This document shows positions 2,306-62,092 of a DNA stretch of 64,000 nt, in pieces. Numbering within the stretch: position 1 is the first letter of the stretch; each line of letters opens with the position of its first letter. This DNA comes from Flavobacteriia bacterium (GTDB taxonomy: Bacteria > Bacteroidota > Bacteroidia > Flavobacteriales > Flavobacteriaceae), in NCBI GenBank assembly GCA_004293165.1, contig RDYL01000002.1, forward strand, positions 62,001-126,000, in the 5' to 3' direction. The notes beneath the pieces are model-generated. The model was given only the letters and a program-made list of their open reading frames with translations. It had not been told where the DNA came from and ran no database searches. The translations under genes were made by a program, and so were the position numbers.

Positions 2306-3556
2306 TTACATGCCACTTCTAATAGCTTCCACTGGATCTAATTTAGAAGCAGAAATAGCCGGAATAATTCCAGAAATTAGTCCAATAAAAGCAGCCAATC
2401 CTGAACCTAACAACATGTTTGCTGCGCTTAATACAAATTCAAAATCCAATGCCGATGAAAGAATTAAAGCGATAATCCAAACTAAAAACATTCCTACCAT
2501 TCCACCTATTAAAGATAAAATAACGGCTTCAAACAAGAATTGAAACAAAATGAATTTATTTTTAGCACCAAGCGCTTTTTGTATTCCGATTAAGTTAGTA
2601 CGTTCTTTTACTGATACAAACATGATGTTTGCAATACCAAATCCGCCTACTAGTAAGGAAAAGGCACTGATAATCCATCCTATCATGTTCATTTGTCCAA
2701 TGATATTATCAATAAAATCTGTAAAACCAGATAATACATTCATGAAAAAGTTATCAATTTCACCTGTTTTCACGCCTCTATGTGTACGAAGTTTTTGAGC
2801 TAATTCGGCTTTAAATTCTTCCACATCAATACCCTTTACAGGTTTTATTAAAATAGCAGGCGTTAACGTTTTATTATTATCACCATAGAGTCTTCTTAAA
2901 AAATTAACTGGAAAAAATACCGCAACATCATTACTGTCACCAAAAGTACTTTGTCCTTGCTTTTTTAGCACACCAATAACCGTAAATTTCTGACCATACA
3001 AACGTACTTTTTTACCGATAGGGTCGCTATTTTCGAACAAACCAGTGGCTACTTCACTTCCAATAACAATTACTGGACTTCCAGAATTAGATTCCGATTC
3101 GTTAAACAAACGACCTTTGTCGATTTTAATAGGTTCTATCTCAAAAAAATCTTCGGTTGACGGTTTAACACGAATAGAATTTACTGTTTTAGACTCGTAT
3201 TTAATGTTTTCGTTTCGGGTAAATAAATTGAAAGAGATTTTATCGATTCCATTAACATTACGTTTTATGTGTTCAAATTCATCATAAGTAACATCTGGAA
3301 ATTGCTCTCGTTTCCATTTAGGAATTTCAGAAGGACCGAATGAAAAACGCATTAAATACACTGTATTCATGTCCATATCACTCAAATCTTCCTTAATTTT
3401 TTTATCCATAGAATCTACCGCAGCCAACACCGCAATAATGGAAAAAATACCAATGGTAACGCCTAACAACGACAAAAGTGTACGCAATTTATTGTTGCGC
3501 AACGCGTTAATGGCAAAACTGAAACTCTCTGAAAGTAATCGTAAATATAAAAGCAT
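2306..3556 (-). CDS. MacB-like ABC transporter permease
   Basis: 416 residues with the MacB/FtsX architecture: one N-terminal membrane helix (about 28-48, after LRNNKLRTLLSLLGVTIG), a large periplasmic MacB_PCD domain (about 55-270), then three C-terminal helices ending in PAISASKLDPVEAIRSGM, the usual FtsX-type ending. Family members work with an ABC ATPase, and often a membrane fusion protein, in efflux or lipoprotein-type transport. No ATPase gene adjoins it here, so the partner must be elsewhere. It is read away from the divergent gene at 3647. Permease family confidence is high; substrate unknown. Confidence 0.9.
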   Translation of the reverse strand: MLLYLRLLSESFSFAINALRNNKLRTLLSLLGVTIGIFSIIAVLAAVDSMDKKIKEDLSDMDMNTVYLMRFSFGPSEIPKWKREQFPDVTYDEFEHIKRNVNGIDKISFNLFTRNENIKYESKTVNSIRVKPSTEDFFEIEPIKIDKGRLFNESESNSGSPVIVIGSEVATGLFENSDPIGKKVRLYGQKFTVIGVLKKQGQSTFGDSNDVAVFFPVNFLRRLYGDNNKTLTPAILIKPVKGIDVEEFKAELAQKLRTHRGVKTGEIDNFFMNVLSGFTDFIDNIIGQMNMIGWIISAFSLLVGGFGIANIMFVSVKERTNLIGIQKALGAKNKFILFQFLFEAVILSLIGGMVGMFLVWIIALILSSALDFEFVLSAANMLLGSGLAAFIGLISGIIPAISASKLDPVEAIRSGM

Positions 3557-3646
3557 AATACTGAGCTATTACTATAAGTAGAGTTATGTATGAAAATGTT
3601 ACAATTGGAGGGAATTTATTTATATTTGGAAACCAAAATCAAGCAA

Positions 3647-4329: not shown

Positions 4330-4372
4330 AAAATATAAAACAATAAAGTTTGACTATTTTAAGAAGTATAAC
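4330..4372 (+). repeat. 43-bp direct repeat, left copy
   Basis: Identical over 43 nt to 5587-5629. It carries the TTTG (4349-4352) that serves as the -33 element in the right copy, but here the matching -7 box is missing because REP1 sequence follows. It is thus an orphaned half promoter. Confidence 0.9.
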
Positions 4373-4374
4373 CC

Positions 4375-4405
4375 ACGCTAGCGCGAGCGTCACGCTCGTG
4401 CCCAC
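4375..4405 (-). repeat. REP1 palindromic element
   Basis: 31 nt, 30 of which match REP2 (4979-5009) in inverse orientation. The core CGAGCGT-C-ACGCTCG is a 7-bp perfect hairpin. Read on the minus strand it starts with GTGG, a candidate guide tetranucleotide next to the hairpin as in other REP/RAYT pairs. It sits 21 nt before the RAYT start codon. It is GC-rich in an AT-rich setting. Confidence 0.85.
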
Positions 4406-4426
4406 AAAGAAATTAAAAACAACCCT

Positions 4427-4975
4427 ATGAGCAGAAAATACAAATTTGCAGAAAAAGACGGAGCTTATTTCGTTTCATTTGCTACTGTATATTGGATAGA
4501 TGTTTTTACAAGAATTGATTATTTTGACACCATAATCGAATCCTTAGATTATTGCAGAAAAAACAAAGGAATGGAAATTTATGGTTATTGTATTATGCCA
4601 AGTCACATTCATTTAATTTTTCGTTCATCCTTAGGCGATCCATCAGGATTAATGAGAGATTTTAAAGGTTTCACATCTAGAAAAATGTTAAAGGCAATTG
4701 CAGAAAATCCTCAAGAAAGCAGAAAAGATTGGTTACTTTGGATGTTTGAAAAAGCGGGTAAGAAAAATAGTAATGTTGAAAAAAGTCAATTTTGGCAACA
4801 AAATAACCAACCTATTGAAATTTGGTCTTTAAAAGTATTTGAACAAAAATTAAATTACATTCATAATAATCCTGTAGAAACTGGTTTTGTTACTGACCCA
4901 ATTGATTGGAAATACAGTAGTGCAAGAAATTATGGTAATAACGACCAAACTGTTATAGAAATTGACTTGAATTAG
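4427..4975 (+). CDS. REP-associated tyrosine transposase (RAYT, Y1 HUH, IS200-like)
   Basis: 182 residues, of normal family length. The HUH motif is H60-I-H62 in MPSHIHLIFR and the catalytic tyrosine is probably Y144 in KLNYIHNNPVE, both standard for the IS200/RAYT superfamily of single-strand DNA nucleases. The C-terminus carries the usual DWKYSSARNY. RAYTs cut and join REP sequences; here REP1 and REP2 flank the gene as an inverted pair, with their GTGG feet pointing to the gene. All motifs are present and the frame is intact, so the enzyme could be active. Unlike true IS200 elements, RAYT genes are usually single copy and vertically kept; whether this one moves cannot be seen here. Confidence 0.92.
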   Translation: MSRKYKFAEKDGAYFVSFATVYWIDVFTRIDYFDTIIESLDYCRKNKGMEIYGYCIMPSHIHLIFRSSLGDPSGLMRDFKGFTSRKMLKAIAENPQESRKDWLLWMFEKAGKKNSNVEKSQFWQQNNQPIEIWSLKVFEQKLNYIHNNPVETGFVTDPIDWKYSSARNYGNNDQTVIEIDLN

Positions 4976-4978
4976 ATT

Positions 4979-5009
4979 GTGGGCACGAGCGTGACGCTCG
5001 CGCTAGCGA
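4979..5009 (+). repeat. REP2 palindromic element, inverted relative to REP1
   Basis: Begins GTGGGCACGAGCGTGACGC and ends in GCTAGCGA. It is the reverse complement of REP1 with one mismatch, and begins 3 nt after the RAYT stop. REP1 and REP2 form a BIME-like inverted pair around the transposase gene. Confidence 0.85.
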
Positions 5010-5050
5010 CGAAAAAATATAATTATAGAACCTGATCAATAAAATTAAAA

Positions 5051-5539
5051 ATGACAAAAATATTTTATCTTTTTTTAAGTTTTTACTTAGCCCAAAGCGA
5101 TTCATTCATAGAAAAAACAACAGCCGATTTTAATTCAAATAGCAATTTTTTAGTTTTAGACATTAAAGCAAAAAATTACAACGGGCTTGCAATTATTGAA
5201 AATGATGATTTATTTACATTTTATCAAATCACACAAAATAAAAACAAACAAGAGTATAAATTATTAGCTCAAGAAATTCTTACTAAAAAGAATCATATAG
5301 AAATAAAGGAAGATTCCATTGAAAAATGGGGATTTGTAAAAGTAAAAGAATCTAATAAAATCAAAAGTAAATTTAAAAAAGGGTTAAAAAGTTTCATTAA
5401 AATTTATTTCAATGACGACTTGGTTGAAAAAGGAATTACAAATGAAGAAGAAAGGGCATTTATTATAAAAATTTTATTTGAAAACAAAATATCAAGTTAT
5501 ATTGATGACGAAACTGGCCTGTTAATTTTAAATAAATAA
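5051..5539 (+). CDS. Orphan small protein carried between REP2 and REP3, unknown function
   Basis: 162 residues; ATG start with a short hydrophobic N-terminus (IFYLFLSFYLAQS) that looks like a signal peptide. The mature part is lysine/glutamate/isoleucine-rich without recognisable motifs; a segment KFKKGLKSFIKIYF is strongly basic. It lies wholly inside the REP-bounded island with REP2 42 nt upstream and REP3 12 nt downstream, so it may be a passenger. Its lack of resemblance to the RAYT gene and its AT-rich composition argue for separate origin. It could also be a non-functional frame, but the good start, signal-like N-terminus and length favour a gene. Confidence 0.5.
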   Translation: MTKIFYLFLSFYLAQSDSFIEKTTADFNSNSNFLVLDIKAKNYNGLAIIENDDLFTFYQITQNKNKQEYKLLAQEILTKKNHIEIKEDSIEKWGFVKVKESNKIKSKFKKGLKSFIKIYFNDDLVEKGITNEEERAFIIKILFENKISSYIDDETGLLILNK

Positions 5540-5551
5540 CAATATAACTCA

Positions 5552-5580
5552 ATGCTAGCGCGCGTCACGCTCGTGCCCAC
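5552..5580 (-). repeat. REP3 palindromic element with a 2-nt deletion in the hairpin
   Basis: Same orientation as REP1. It matches REP1 from GCTAGCGCG to GTGCCCAC except that two nucleotides (AG) are missing in one arm, which damages the 7-bp stem. Probably a degenerate REP, no longer a good RAYT substrate. Confidence 0.75.
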
Positions 5581-5586
5581 TAAGAA

Positions 5587-5629
5587 AAAATATAAAACAA
5601 TAAAGTTTGACTATTTTAAGAAGTATAAC
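5587..5629 (+). repeat. 43-bp direct repeat, right copy, containing the purH -33 region
   Basis: Identical to 4330-4372. TTTG at 5606-5609 is spaced 20 nt from TACTTTTG at 5630-5637, giving a complete promoter only in this copy. Confidence 0.9.
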
Positions 5630-5637
5630 TACTTTTG
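5606..5637 (+). promoter_or_regulatory. purH promoter (Bacteroidota type)
   Basis: TTTG (5606-5609), 20-nt spacer, TACTTTTG (5630-5637). It fits the TTTG-N19-TAnnTTTG consensus within one base of spacing. The -7 box lies 57 nt before the purH ATG. The left half is inside the 43-bp direct repeat and the right half outside it. Confidence 0.75.
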
Positions 5638-24665: not shown

Positions 24666-24698
24666 AAAGATATAAAAAATATTTTTAAAATATATTAT

Positions 24699-26207
24699 CT
24701 ATTCGGTTTTACCTTCAATGTGGTCGTTGTGCATTCTTTTTTCTAACCAAGAACTCAGTACGAAAAGAATTGCCGCTGCCGCTCCAGACATGATGATAAA
24801 CAAAATGAAAAATTCATATAAATTAGTAATTTGAAAACCTAAAAATGAAGTTGCTCCACCTGTTCCGTCTTCTCCACCAGGAATCAAAGCACTTAATGTT
24901 CCAGCAAATTTATTAGCTGCAGCATTGGCTAAAAACCAAGTCCCCATCATTAATGAAGACAAACGTAATGGTGCTAATTTAGAAACCATCGATAAACCAA
25001 TTGGCGATAAACATAATTCTCCAATTGTATGAATTACATATAATCCAATTAACCACCACATAGAGACTTTTTCACCTAATCCTAAACCTTTAACAGCAAT
25101 TGCAATAACTACATATCCTAGAGCCACTAATCCAAGACCTATTGCCATTTTTTTAGGTGATGATGGTTCTAATTTTCTAGCATATAAAAAGCCCCATATA
25201 ATTGTCATAATTGGCGCTAATGATATTACCGCTAATGGATTTACAGATTGAAAATATGATGCTGGCATTTCCCATCCAAAAATAGTTCTTTCAGTTTGTC
25301 TATCGGCAAATAATGTTAGTGAAGCTCCTGCTTGTTCAAAAGCACCCCAAAAGAAAATCACGAAAAACGCTAAAAGGAAAATTACAGTTATTCTTTGTGT
25401 TTCTATTTTTGACAAACTTTTATCACTAAAAATTAATATTGGCATAGCCACCATTGCGCCATAAATAAAATAACTAATAATATCTACATCACTTTTAAAC
25501 ATTTGTTTAAAATTCAACATAAAGAAAATTATAGCTATTGAACCTATTATCATTCCAATACTTTTTACATCTAATTTTTTTACTGGAAGTCCAATTTCAT
25601 TTCCTTCTTCAGAAATTAAATATTTTTTTTGACCTAATATAAAAGCGACTAACCCAAGCAACATTCCTATACCAGCCGCTAAGAAACCCCATTTAAAATC
25701 CATTGAACCACAAACTAAAGGAGAAAAGAAGGCTCCTAAGTTGATTCCCATGTAAAAAATAGTAAATGCGCTATCTATTCTTCTGTCGTTGGCAGGATAT
25801 AATTGTCCTACCATAGTTGAAATATTCGGTTTAAAGAAACCATTACCAATAATAATTGCAGTTAATCCCATCCACATTAATGAAACACCACCATTTGCAC
25901 CAACTGAAGCACTAAAAAACATAAAGAATTGACCTATTGCCATTAATAAACCACCAATAACAATGCTTCGTCTATTTCCTAAAAATTTATCACATAAATA
26001 ACCTCCTAAAAGTGGCGTTAAATATACTAAACCTGTATAGCTTCCATAAATTTCTGAAGCATCAGCATCTTTCATTAATAAAACTTTTGTCATAAATAGA
26101 ATGAAAATTGCTCTCATTCCATAATAACTAAATCGTTCCCACATTTCAGTGAAGAATAAAAAGTACAACCCTTTTGGATGTCCTGTTTTCACTACAGTTT
26201 TGTTCAT
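24699..26207 (-). CDS. POT/PTR-family peptide transporter (copy 3, paired with DPP IV)
   Basis: 502 residues, about 14 helices. Motifs: EMWERFSYYGMRAIF, GNGFFKPNISTMVGQLYP and FYMGINLGAFFSPL. Proton-driven di/tripeptide importer. It begins 24 nt after the stop of the DPP IV-type peptidase and is ended by its own terminator, so peptidase and transporter form one unit: the exopeptidase releases dipeptides in the periplasm and this carrier takes them in. That coupling is inferred from gene order and family functions. Confidence 0.94.
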   Translation of the reverse strand: MNKTVVKTGHPKGLYFLFFTEMWERFSYYGMRAIFILFMTKVLLMKDADASEIYGSYTGLVYLTPLLGGYLCDKFLGNRRSIVIGGLLMAIGQFFMFFSASVGANGGVSLMWMGLTAIIIGNGFFKPNISTMVGQLYPANDRRIDSAFTIFYMGINLGAFFSPLVCGSMDFKWGFLAAGIGMLLGLVAFILGQKKYLISEEGNEIGLPVKKLDVKSIGMIIGSIAIIFFMLNFKQMFKSDVDIISYFIYGAMVAMPILIFSDKSLSKIETQRITVIFLLAFFVIFFWGAFEQAGASLTLFADRQTERTIFGWEMPASYFQSVNPLAVISLAPIMTIIWGFLYARKLEPSSPKKMAIGLGLVALGYVVIAIAVKGLGLGEKVSMWWLIGLYVIHTIGELCLSPIGLSMVSKLAPLRLSSLMMGTWFLANAAANKFAGTLSALIPGGEDGTGGATSFLGFQITNLYEFFILFIIMSGAAAAILFVLSSWLEKRMHNDHIEGKTE

Positions 26208-59308: not shown

Positions 59309-60256
59309 TTATTTTATTAATTTTCCAAACATAAATTCTAATGGAATATTGATTCTTTTTTGCCAAGAAGCTTCCGAATGATTTTCGTCTTCAAATTTTA
59401 AATTTCGAGAATCCGCAGTTGAATAACCTTTTGATTTTAAAATTTCATCCACTCGATATTCATATTTTAAATAGTACGCATCTAATGTTTGGGTTCCGTA
59501 ATCAAAATATATTTTGTGGTTCTTAGCTTCGGGTAATTTCTTTTCCATGTAAGCAAAAAAGGATTCCGGTATTGGATTGTTTTCAAATTCTCTAAATCCA
59601 ATCCAATGCGTTGATAAACAAGCGGCTTTCCCAAAAATTGTTGGATACTCACACAAGGCATACATCGAAATTAATCCGCCCATACTTGAACCCATAATGG
59701 CTGTGTGATTTGCCGTTGTAAAAACAGAATACTTTTTATCAATGTAAGGTTTCAATTCTTCTACAATGAACTTCAAATAGTTGTCGGAATTGATTTTACT
59801 GTCATCAAATGGAAATTGTGATTTTTTAGCTTCGATTTGAATTTTCTCTTTTAACTCTTTTGAAAGTGATTCGTAAGGTTTTTTTGGATACAAATCCATG
59901 TGGCGTAAGTTGGGAATATTCCAAATAGCAACCACAATAAATTCCTTCACCTTATTTTCTCTCATTAATTGCGAGGTAACTTCATCAACTTTCCATTCTT
60001 GTTTATTCCAAGTTTTAGTTGAATCAAACAGCATTTGGCCATCGTGCATATACAAAACATTGTATTTTTTTGATTTGGAATATTCCTTTGGCAACCAAAC
60101 ATCAACTGTTCGTGGTACAATATATTTAGAAGGAAAGCTATCCACTCTTTCAATATTCCCCTCAAAATTTCCTGAATTTTCAAGAGCATAGGATTTTATC
60201 TTACTTTGAGAAAAAGCAAAACAAGAGAATAATATAAAGAATAATACTTGTTTCAT
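59309..60256 (-). CDS. Secreted alpha/beta-hydrolase (esterase-like) of the starch operon
   Basis: 315 residues; signal peptide (to about CFAFSQ). Alpha/beta-hydrolase fold with the nucleophile elbow GSSMGGLISMYAL; TVDVWLPKEYSKSKKYNVLYMHDGQMLF resembles esterase-D-like / enterochelin-esterase-type proteins. The acid and the histidine (near DENHSEASW) fit the triad. It directly follows the SusA-like gene with no gap and precedes a GH13, so it probably acts on esters found on or with the polysaccharide; the substrate is not known. Confidence 0.87.
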   Translation of the reverse strand: MKQVLFFILFSCFAFSQSKIKSYALENSGNFEGNIERVDSFPSKYIVPRTVDVWLPKEYSKSKKYNVLYMHDGQMLFDSTKTWNKQEWKVDEVTSQLMRENKVKEFIVVAIWNIPNLRHMDLYPKKPYESLSKELKEKIQIEAKKSQFPFDDSKINSDNYLKFIVEELKPYIDKKYSVFTTANHTAIMGSSMGGLISMYALCEYPTIFGKAACLSTHWIGFREFENNPIPESFFAYMEKKLPEAKNHKIYFDYGTQTLDAYYLKYEYRVDEILKSKGYSTADSRNLKFEDENHSEASWQKRINIPLEFMFGKLIK

Positions 60257-62092
60257 TTATTTCAATTCTAAAATCATGGAAGTTTTTCCTTCAATCGATA
60301 ATTCACTTTTCAAATCGATTGTTTTTCCTGAAAGAATATCATTTCCAGAAGTAAACAATTTGATATTTTCTTGAAAACGTTCTAGACTAAATTTTTGTAC
60401 ATCGGGAGCGTTATTAATTACTACCATAACCGTTTCCTTATCATTGTGACGGAAATACACATACACATTATTCTCAGGAATATAGTGCGTTAATTTTCCG
60501 TTGTGAATTACGGCTTTATCTTTTCTCCAGTTCAATACTTTTTTTGAAAAATCGAAAAATTTGGCTTGTTCAGGAGTTCTTCCACTAGTTAAAAAAGCAT
60601 TATTTGTATCGCCTTTCCAACCGCCAGGAAAATCTTGGCGAATGTCAGCATCTCCTTTTCCTTTGTCACCCGCCATTCCAATTTCAGAACCATAATATAA
60701 TTGAGGAATTCCTCTCATGGTTGCCATTATGGTCATTCCCAATTGATATTTTTTGAAATCATTTTGATAAATTTGATTGAAACGACTTGTATCGTGATTC
60801 TCTAAGAAAATCAATAGATTATTTGGGTCGGCATACAAGAAATCATTTACGAAATTCTCGTAAAATTTAATCATACCATTGCTCCAATCGGCTCTGTCTT
60901 CATAAAAAACGTTTCCAAAAACATCGTGCAACGTAAAATCCATTACACTTGGTAAATACGAATTATAACTTTGAATTTTCGCAATTGGACTATCCTTTTG
61001 CCAATACGAAATTTGGGCTTGATCGTGCATCCAAACTTCTCCTACAATATTGAAATAAGGGTATTCATCAGTAATCGCTTTTGTCCATTTTGCGATTCCT
61101 TCTTTATCGTTGTACGAATAAGTATCGACACGGAACCCATCTAAATCAGCATACTCAATCCACCAAATCGCATTTTGAACTAAATAATTCAACACCAAAG
61201 GATTTGATTGGTTTAAATCGGGCATGCTTGGCACAAACCAACCGTCCATACATAATTTAGCATCTATTTTTGAACCATTTGTATCGTATTGCGTAGTCAT
61301 GCGATAGTTACTTTGTTTGTAACCTGGAAATTGATGAAACCAATCGTAGGTTGGCATGTCTTTAAACATCCAATGTTCGGCACCCCAATGATTGGTAACA
61401 TAATCTTTGATTAATTTCATATCACGTTTGTGCATTTCATCGGCTAACTTTTTGTATTCTTCATTGGTTCCGTAACGTGAATCAATTTTATACACATCAG
61501 ATTGTCCGTAAGTATGATACGAATAGCCTTTGTCATTATCTTCACACATTGGCGTACTCCAAATTGCCGTTGCCCCTAATTCTTTGATATAATCCAAATT
61601 ATTGATGATACCTTGAATATCGCCACCATGTCTTCCGCCTGGTAAACTTCTGTTGGCTTTTTCTTGTAATTCTGAGGATGAATCGTTGTTTGGATTTCCA
61701 TTTGCAAAACGGTCTGGCATTAACAAATACATTACATCAGAAGCATCAAAACTTTTACGAAGTGCCGAATTCGGTCTTCTCTTTTTAATTTCGAAATTTC
61801 TTTTGAATGATTTTTTACCATTGGTAAACGTAAATTGTAGTTCTTGTGCTTTCACACTTTTAGTATCAATTGTAACGAAAAGGTAATTTGGATTTTCTGT
61901 TTTAGTTACATTCGTAATTACCAGATTGTTTGAAACAGTTACCGAATTCTGAGCAATATTTTTTCCGTAAAACAATACTTGAACTTCGGATTTATTCATG
62001 CCTTCGTACCAAAAGGGTGGTTCCATTCGGTCAATTTGTGCCGATAGCGAAAGTGTGAATAGAGCGACAAATGAGAAAATTATTTTTTTCAT
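60257..62092 (-). CDS. susA: SusA-like neopullulanase / cyclomaltodextrinase (GH13)
   Basis: 611 residues. Signal peptide (to about SLSAQ), N-terminal Ig-like cyclomaltodextrinase domain (about 20-105, with RMEPPFWYEGMNKSEVQVLFYG as its start), then the GH13 barrel with YLLMPDRFANG, LIKDYVTNHWG, DGFRVDTYSYN (nucleophile), FNIVGEVWM (acid) and FLENHDTSRF. Such enzymes split maltodextrins, pullulan or cyclodextrins in the periplasm. Its start lies 8 nt after the GH97 gene stop. It differs from the other GH13 in the window in carrying the N-terminal domain and no lipobox. Confidence 0.93.
   Translation of the reverse strand: MKKIIFSFVALFTLSLSAQIDRMEPPFWYEGMNKSEVQVLFYGKNIAQNSVTVSNNLVITNVTKTENPNYLFVTIDTKSVKAQELQFTFTNGKKSFKRNFEIKKRRPNSALRKSFDASDVMYLLMPDRFANGNPNNDSSSELQEKANRSLPGGRHGGDIQGIINNLDYIKELGATAIWSTPMCEDNDKGYSYHTYGQSDVYKIDSRYGTNEEYKKLADEMHKRDMKLIKDYVTNHWGAEHWMFKDMPTYDWFHQFPGYKQSNYRMTTQYDTNGSKIDAKLCMDGWFVPSMPDLNQSNPLVLNYLVQNAIWWIEYADLDGFRVDTYSYNDKEGIAKWTKAITDEYPYFNIVGEVWMHDQAQISYWQKDSPIAKIQSYNSYLPSVMDFTLHDVFGNVFYEDRADWSNGMIKFYENFVNDFLYADPNNLLIFLENHDTSRFNQIYQNDFKKYQLGMTIMATMRGIPQLYYGSEIGMAGDKGKGDADIRQDFPGGWKGDTNNAFLTSGRTPEQAKFFDFSKKVLNWRKDKAVIHNGKLTHYIPENNVYVYFRHNDKETVMVVINNAPDVQKFSLERFQENIKLFTSGNDILSGKTIDLKSELSIEGKTSMILELK

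What the first reader, a model, noticed from the sequence alone, without database searches (positions are those of the whole stretch)
4330..5637. REP/RAYT island bracketed by a 43-bp perfect direct repeat that splits and rebuilds the purH promoter
The two 43-bp copies (4330-4372 and 5587-5629) are identical. The right copy holds the -33 TTTG of a full Bacteroidota promoter whose -7 box starts at the very next base; the left copy has the same TTTG but runs into REP1. Deleting one copy plus the 1.2 kb between would restore a simple gene-promoter-purH order. IS200/RAYT enzymes leave no target duplication, so an unusually long duplication around a RAYT island is unexpected. It may mark insertion of a REP/RAYT/passenger unit by another route, for example repair at a REP-induced break.
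Basis: partly seen in the sequence, partly recalled or inferred. Interest (0 to 1): 0.72.

Follow-up and report, generated by a model that had tools for sequence, protein, structure and literature searches.

The report
Stacked alleles at purH gene-swap hotspot
In a Flavobacterium genome a 43-base piece of the predicted purH promoter occurs twice, likely because two versions of a gene-swapping hotspot were joined end to end at a palindromic REP repeat, and probably not because a jumping element inserted there.

Summary
In detail: two identical 43-bp copies (4330-4372, 5587-5629) bracket REP1-RAYT-REP2-orf162-REP3, and only the right copy is followed by a TAnnTTTG -7 box. "Insertion with a long duplication" is not the best reading. 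In 20 relatives the macB-purH interval is a hotspot of changing small genes. A same-species genome (G138) with about 99% identical flanks has another gene there, no RAYT or REP, and one partial copy. The 43 bp is the hotspot's purH-side border: fully invariant columns begin at its first base. L042 has the island architecture REP1-RAYT-REP2-gene-REP3-border without a left copy (its RAYT frame is interrupted), and REP or REP-remnant|border junctions occur in L041 and L048 too. The left copy is best read as a second border, kept when an orf225-border allele was joined to a REP1...REP3-border allele at REP1's outer edge. L051, and less surely L049, look like further cases. All four REP loci seen in this genome lie in, or at the edge of, segments that differ from G138. 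The joining mechanism and any role of RAYT are inferred.

The parts
2306..3556 (-). macB-like ABC transporter permease, left flank of the hotspot
   Evidence: Pfam MacB_PCD and FtsX; beside the interval in 19 of the 20 relatives (58 bp of it in L086; L042's contig ends before it); not found in the more distant L052
3593..3628 (+). left border of the hotspot (36 bp)
   Evidence: found at 72% or more identity in 15 of the 19 loci, identical in the window, L039, L040, L047; repeated across a REP in L051
3650..4327 (+). orf225, orphan small gene (the ORF could start at 3590, 245 aa)
   Evidence: no strong relative in 397 other Flavobacterium genomes, one weak hit; weak similarity to orf128 of L051
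4330..4372 (+). left 43-bp copy: second right border, promoter fragment without a -7 box
4376..4407 (+). REP1; its outer edge is the seam
   Evidence: DNA hairpin -9.9 kcal/mol, z -3.05; different left neighbours in relatives
4427..4975 (+). RAYT (REP-associated tyrosine transposase), 182 aa
   Evidence: NCBIfam NF047646 94.8 bits, cut-off 80; Pfam Y1_Tnp
4977..5008 (-). REP2, inverted relative to REP1
   Evidence: identical to the reverse complement of REP1 over 32 nt; immediate right neighbours differ among alleles; fold no better than shuffles (z -0.74)
5051..5539 (+). orf162 cargo gene
   Evidence: relatives in L047 (89% nt) and L049 (92% nt) at the same locus without RAYT
5555..5580 (+). 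REP3, degenerate REP abutting the right border
   Evidence: REP or REP-remnant|border also in L041, L042, L048; fold no better than shuffles
5587..5629 (+). right 43-bp copy: right border with the predicted purH -33 element (TTTG 5606-5609)
5630..5637 (+). predicted -7 box TACTTTTG of purH
   Evidence: sequence; consensus TAnnTTTG in PMC9723704
5695..7227 (+). purH, right flank
   Evidence: Pfam AICARFT_IMPCHas and MGS

Best explanation
The 43-bp repeat is the purH-side border of a variable-gene hotspot present twice, likely because two alleles of the hotspot were stacked end to end by a recombination that joined the border of one allele (orf225-border) to the outer edge of REP1 of another (REP1-RAYT-REP2-orf162-REP3-border-purH). 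Shown: the hotspot, the modularity, the coincidence of the repeat with the border, and the REP at the seam. Inferred: one end of the transferred DNA paired with homologous flank (purH, or equally macB from the other side) and the other end was joined with little homology (2 bp, AC, if the other parent resembled L042/L091). This is homology-facilitated illegitimate recombination. The left copy is then a promoter fragment cut off from its -7 box, while purH keeps a complete predicted promoter on the right. Why the join falls at a REP (hairpin end or nick by RAYT) is untested.
For: (1) In 12 aligned border copies from 10 genomes (11 complete plus the L049 remnant), fully invariant columns begin at the first base of the repeat; one A before it is shared by all but the left copy, and further upstream the sequence differs by allele. 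Of 10 relatives with this border type 7 carry the exact 43-mer and 3 differ at one base. (2) L042 has REP1-RAYT-REP2-gene-REP3-border with no left copy; REP or REP-remnant|border junctions also occur in L041 and L048. (3) L049 reads gene-border remnant-REP-tail-border, and both presumed parents are seen as natural alleles: gene-border (208 of 230 aligned bases match L043, 204 of 230 L047) and REP-tail-border (52 of 61 match L091). (4) L051 repeats the left border across a REP; that match and the window's second right border are each reached by 0 of 200 shuffles. (5) Same-species G138 has flanks 98.9-99.1% identical but another gene (orf338) and 32 of the 43 bp once, so the interval is swapped within a species. 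(6) The 7 REPs found in this genome (6 exact CGAGC-5nt-GCTCG cores plus REP3) lie at 4 loci, all in or at the edge of segments that differ from G138; at C10 the alignment stops at the last base of the REP pair. Apart from macB-purH, 2 other segments break the window's alignment with G138 in 64 kb.
Against: No allele with orf225-border-purH was found, so one parent is unseen. The L049 remnant is not significant by score (62 of 200 shuffles reach it) and rests on context. RAYT loci outside purH also carry host-sequence direct repeats (3 of 27 strong, 2 of 27 weak), which a REP/RAYT insertion with duplication would also give. REPs might ride in variable segments for other reasons, so point 6 is association. 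Natural competence was not tested; PMC7965970 (abstract in listing) reports Flavobacterium johnsoniae as not competent under the conditions used.
Confidence: 0.6

Rival explanations
1. The block REP1...REP3 inserted as a unit into orf225-border-purH, with a 43-bp duplication made by repair of a long staggered or REP-induced break.
For: Both inner edges of the repeat abut REPs. Host-sequence direct repeats also flank RAYT in 3 of 27 fetched RAYT loci elsewhere at E below 1e-17 (L110, L013, L123; the last two look like one locus) and weakly in 2 more (L112, L121), against 0 of 107 control positions at that strength and 1 of 107 weak; matches containing REP-like motifs were dropped first, and L114 had no right flank.
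Against: The left end of the repeat coincides with the native border start; REP|border junctions exist without a left copy; the unit is modular. IS200/IS605 members are reported not to make larger target duplications (PMC2817692, passage seen).
Confidence: 0.17
2. A circle holding REP1...REP3 plus one border integrated by a single crossover in the resident 43-bp border.
For: It would give exactly the observed order and an exact repeat (inference; no call tests it).
Against: 43 bp is little homology; no trace of a circle was seen in the sequences examined, but none was searched for.
Confidence: 0.08
3. The border was first duplicated by slippage or unequal exchange and the REP block arrived later between the copies.
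For: Short direct repeats flank 10-18% of small variable segments in the four alignments of PMC2884548 (passages).
Against: No examined relative has two border copies without a REP: of the 13 islands without an exact REP core, the best second-border match is still reached by 11 of 200 shuffles (L045).
Confidence: 0.1

Closest known systems
Homology-facilitated illegitimate recombination; stacked immunity-gene arrays of Vibrio cholerae T6SS clusters (PMC5361080)
   Same: One end anchored in a conserved flank, the other joined without homology, so that an old module is kept beside a new one (section 13 read).
   Different: Here the anchor would be a housekeeping gene and its promoter, the kept remnant is a promoter piece, and the seam is at a REP palindrome beside a RAYT gene.
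REPtron / TnpAREP (RAYT), subclass 2.6 of Bacteroidetes (PMC6006769)
   Same: RAYT flanked by inverted REPs; WQ and YIH[QN]NP motifs as in the paper's table (passages and section 25).
   Different: Only 7 REPs at 4 loci found in this genome; [quoted passage not shown]
Small variable segments of bacterial genomes (PMC2884548)
   Same: Short, flank-conserved, content-swapped intervals, some bounded by direct repeats (passages).
   Different: Here REPs lie at the seams and the interval changes between species as well as within one.

Membership tests
RAYT / TnpAREP | Passes a curated REP-associated tyrosine transposase model | tested here: met
   NF047646 94.8 bits, cut-off 80
RAYT / TnpAREP | HUH motif and single catalytic Tyr of subclass 2.6 (NH[LIV]H, WQ, YIH[QN]NP) | tested here: inconclusive
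   Sequence has SHIH (HUH kept, N replaced by S), FWQ and YIHNNP
RAYT / TnpAREP | Gene flanked by inverted REPs | tested here: met
   inverted repeat 4376-4422 / 4962-5008
RAYT / TnpAREP | Cognate REPs in high copy across the genome | tested here: not met
   7 REPs at 4 loci; degenerate copies would be missed
RAYT / TnpAREP | Cleaves and joins REP DNA | not testable with these tools
   needs biochemistry
Insertion with target-site duplication | Relatives with a single target copy | tested here: met
   no second right border in the 20 relatives examined, apart from the L049 remnant; the border of L050 is divergent
Insertion with target-site duplication | Element-target junctions occur only in the duplicated state | tested here: not met
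   REP or REP-remnant|border junctions in L041, L042, L048 without a left copy
Insertion with target-site duplication | Same unit elsewhere with its own duplication | tested here: not met
   RAYT+orf162 unit not seen elsewhere in the own genome, the relatives or the listed matches of 398 genomes (the list is cut); other RAYT blocks with host repeats exist
Homology-facilitated illegitimate recombination | One junction with no or very short homology | tested here: met
   DR1|REP1 seam shares only AC with L042/L091 (read); assumes an L042/L091-like parent
Homology-facilitated illegitimate recombination | Both parental structures identifiable | tested here: inconclusive
   L042-like parent seen; orf225-border parent not found; for L049 both are seen
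Homology-facilitated illegitimate recombination | Host takes up DNA | not tested
   competence genes not searched
Small-gene exchange hotspot | Conserved flanks, changing content, also within a species | tested here: met
   20 relatives including same-species G138

The most novel reading that the evidence does not exclude
REPs and their RAYT act as a low-copy cassette-joining system: the outer edges of REPs are the breakpoints at which single-gene cassettes are added, swapped or stacked beside housekeeping genes, a single-stranded-hairpin analogue of integron cassette joining without an integron integrase.
Probability: 0.15. Interest if true: 0.85.

Novelty: new variant of a known kind. Interest (0 to 1): 0.5.

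Why it matters
It turns a puzzling long duplication into a readable record of allele stacking and points to REPs, usually seen as passive high-copy repeats, as recurrent seams of gene exchange in a genome where only seven were found. Some exchanged genes look like defence genes (TIR at L137; GmrSD_N with HEPN at L149; perhaps HSDR_N orf338, which has no PADLOC match), so the loci could be used to watch small accessory genes turn over within a species.

Tried and rejected
Target-site duplication by IS200/RAYT transposition: rejected as first choice because the repeat starts at the native border and REP|border junctions exist without the left copy. Dispersed repeat family: rejected. The orf225-border parent: not found. 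L110 (97-bp, 93% repeat around a RAYT) as independent proof: 60 genomes gave no orthologous empty site, so left open. Sub-threshold border matches inside coding regions (L042 orf122, 1 of 200; L039 orf109, 3 of 200) were taken as chance. One search used 27 fetched RAYT loci; one search listed more that were not fetched. Rows left out of the 20 relatives: L052 (no macB hit), L135 and seven more distant loci with a macB hit upstream of purH (L053, L054, L056, L066, L067, L081, L095); the rest of L055-L099 was not examined upstream of purH. Paper searches for RAYT with hotspot, and for Flavobacterium REP cassettes, gave nothing on this locus; nothing wider is claimed about the literature. Papers were seen as passages or single sections, never whole: PMC6006769, PMC5361080, PMC2884548, PMC3733652, PMC2817692, PMC8266576, PMC9723704; PMC7965970 only as a listed abstract.

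Full report
What is there. The exact 43-bp repeat is present as described and far beyond chance (about 1.5e-16 expected pairs). The order is macB (minus strand), left border, orf225, 43 bp, REP1, RAYT, REP2 (inverted), orf162, REP3, 43 bp, -7 box, purH. The 182-aa protein is a RAYT by a curated model (94.8 bits, cut-off 80).

The locus in relatives. purH loci were fetched from public genomes and from unnamed Flavobacterium genomes. In 20 relatives (L038-L051, L086, L091, L094, L097, L126, L130; L042 lacks the left part and L086 most of macB) the macB-purH interval runs from 167 bp, with no gene (L038, L046), to 2.75 kb (L045). The contents differ: a 338-aa protein with an HSDR_N domain, a DUF4738 protein, a weak DUF922 match, small ORFs, a 452-aa ORF on the other strand (L050), RAYT. 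RAYT with both REPs occurs in L039, L042, L051, L091 (in L042 the frame is interrupted); orf162 occurs in L047 and L049 without RAYT. The RAYT of L051 is 95.4% identical to the window's while macB is 86.0% and purH 89.5%, which suggests transfer between species.

A same-species comparison. G138, labelled same species, matches the window at 98.9% up to position 3620 and at 99.1% from 5598 on, and in between has the 338-aa gene instead. It keeps 32 of the 43 bp once. It has no exact GAGCGTNACGCTC core; it does hold one REP pair with a sister core, at the locus matching C10, and a degenerate REP beside carB. So the whole macB-purH interval is swapped within a species.

What the 43 bp is. Of the 21 loci including the window, 11 share one border type, 9 share only its purH-proximal part, and L050 is divergent. 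Aligning 12 border copies from 10 genomes, fully invariant columns begin at the first base of the repeat; one further A is shared by all but the left copy, and before that the sequence differs by allele. The repeat thus runs from the native start of the hotspot's right border to the point where the left copy meets REP1. The identity of the two copies needs no recent duplication, since 7 of 10 relatives of this type carry the same 43-mer and 3 differ at one base.

Why stacking rather than insertion. L042 has REP1-RAYT-REP2-orf122-REP3-border and no left copy; its roughly 65 bp left of REP1 match the orf55 end of L091. REP or REP-remnant|border junctions also precede the border in L041 and L048. 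L049 has the small gene of L043/L047 followed by a short border remnant, then a REP, a tail like that of L091, and a full border; both presumed parents are natural alleles. L051 shows the mirror case: the left border twice with a REP between. Scanning 19 islands for a second border, only the window (right border) and L051 (left border) are reached by 0 of 200 shuffles, and both hold exact REP cores, as do 6 of the 19. Among the 13 without exact cores the best match is reached by 11 of 200. Two weak matches, in L042 (1 of 200) and L039 (3 of 200), lie inside coding sequence, and L049's remnant is not significant by score (62 of 200).

REP edges as seams. In the five alleles with RAYT and both REPs (window, L039, L042, L051, L091), the sequences after REP2's palindrome differ almost at once (three begin with the same G; L039 joins the tail of L091 about 30 bp further on), and REP1's left neighbours are of four kinds, a fifth being the L049 case. 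The other three REP loci of this genome fit. A TIR-domain gene next to carB is replaced in G138 by a DUF4238 gene, with the breakpoint inside the REP. A 458-bp stretch holding a REP and a 94-aa ORF is replaced by GmrSD_N and HEPN genes, where one flank is only 89% identical. At C10 a REP pair is kept in both genomes, and the alignment (97%) stops at its last base, beyond which about 550 bp differ before 97.4% identity resumes. By contrast the window has only two other segments that break its alignment with G138 in 64 kb. Because REPs could ride in variable segments for other reasons, this is association, not proof of a role.

Results against this reading. Of 27 fetched RAYT loci elsewhere in the genus, 3 are flanked by strong direct repeats of host sequence (L110 97 bp at 93%, L013 107 bp at 84%, L123 71 bp at 87%; L013 and L123 look like one locus) and 2 by weak ones (L112, L121), against 0 strong and 1 weak of 107 control positions; L114 had no right flank to test. 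These could be stacked alleles too (in L110 the two copies are followed by different terminator-like hairpins, by eye), but insertion with duplication is not excluded, and a search for orthologous empty sites was uninformative. One presumed parent of the window allele was never seen. REP2 and REP3 do not fold better than shuffles as DNA.

Mechanism. Most likely, DNA carrying one allele paired with the recipient through a conserved flank, and its other end was joined with about 2 bp of shared sequence at the outer edge of REP1; which side was donor cannot be told. This is homology-facilitated illegitimate recombination, proposed for stacked immunity genes in Vibrio cholerae (PMC5361080, section 13 read). 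TnpAREP enzymes can cut and join at CT 5' or 3' of a REP in vitro (PMC8266576, passages), so a RAYT contribution is possible but untested here. The left copy has no -7 box and is predicted to be inactive; the predicted purH promoter on the right is complete.

Verdict. A real and informative feature, best explained as a stacked pair of hotspot alleles with a REP at the seam. It is a new variant of known processes, not a new kind of transposition.

Noticed in passing
L137:2456-3430 (own genome C7 about 59455-60430): TIR-domain gene followed by a REP next to carB; in same-species G138 replaced by a DUF4238 gene with the breakpoint inside the REP.
   Followed up: partly
L138:3126-3583 and L149:1547-3272: A REP and a 94-aa ORF in this genome replaced in G138 by a GmrSD_N protein (PADLOC NsnA and PD-T4-2_A matches) and a HEPN protein.
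   Followed up: partly
L139:501-1107 (own genome C10) and L189:1999-2582: A REP pair with a sister core (TCC loop) is kept in both same-species genomes, and the DNA beyond its last base differs for about 550 bp.
   Followed up: partly
L110:1303-2232; L013:577-2237; L123:1298-2265: RAYT blocks elsewhere flanked by 71-107 bp direct repeats of neighbouring host sequence, with REPs close to the inner edge of at least one copy.
   Followed up: partly
L049:5787-5820: A REP that looks like the outer half of REP1 fused to the outer half of REP2, as if RAYT had been deleted between them.
   Followed up: no
L039, L045, L049, L051, L086, L091: purH leader: About 39 bp (GAACCCGAGGCG...GCGGAATA) is present in the purH 5' leader of these six loci and absent from the window and the other loci printed.
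   Followed up: no
L041, L086, L094, L097, L126: The same 338-aa HSDR_N-domain gene occupies the hotspot in five genomes at 85-91% nt identity; it may be a solitary defence-type gene, though the L094 copy has no PADLOC match.
   Followed up: partly
window 24690-25725: A transporter-like gene differs strongly between this genome and same-species G138 while the flanks are 97.6-98.8% identical (the POT-transporter label is recalled, from no call).
   Followed up: no
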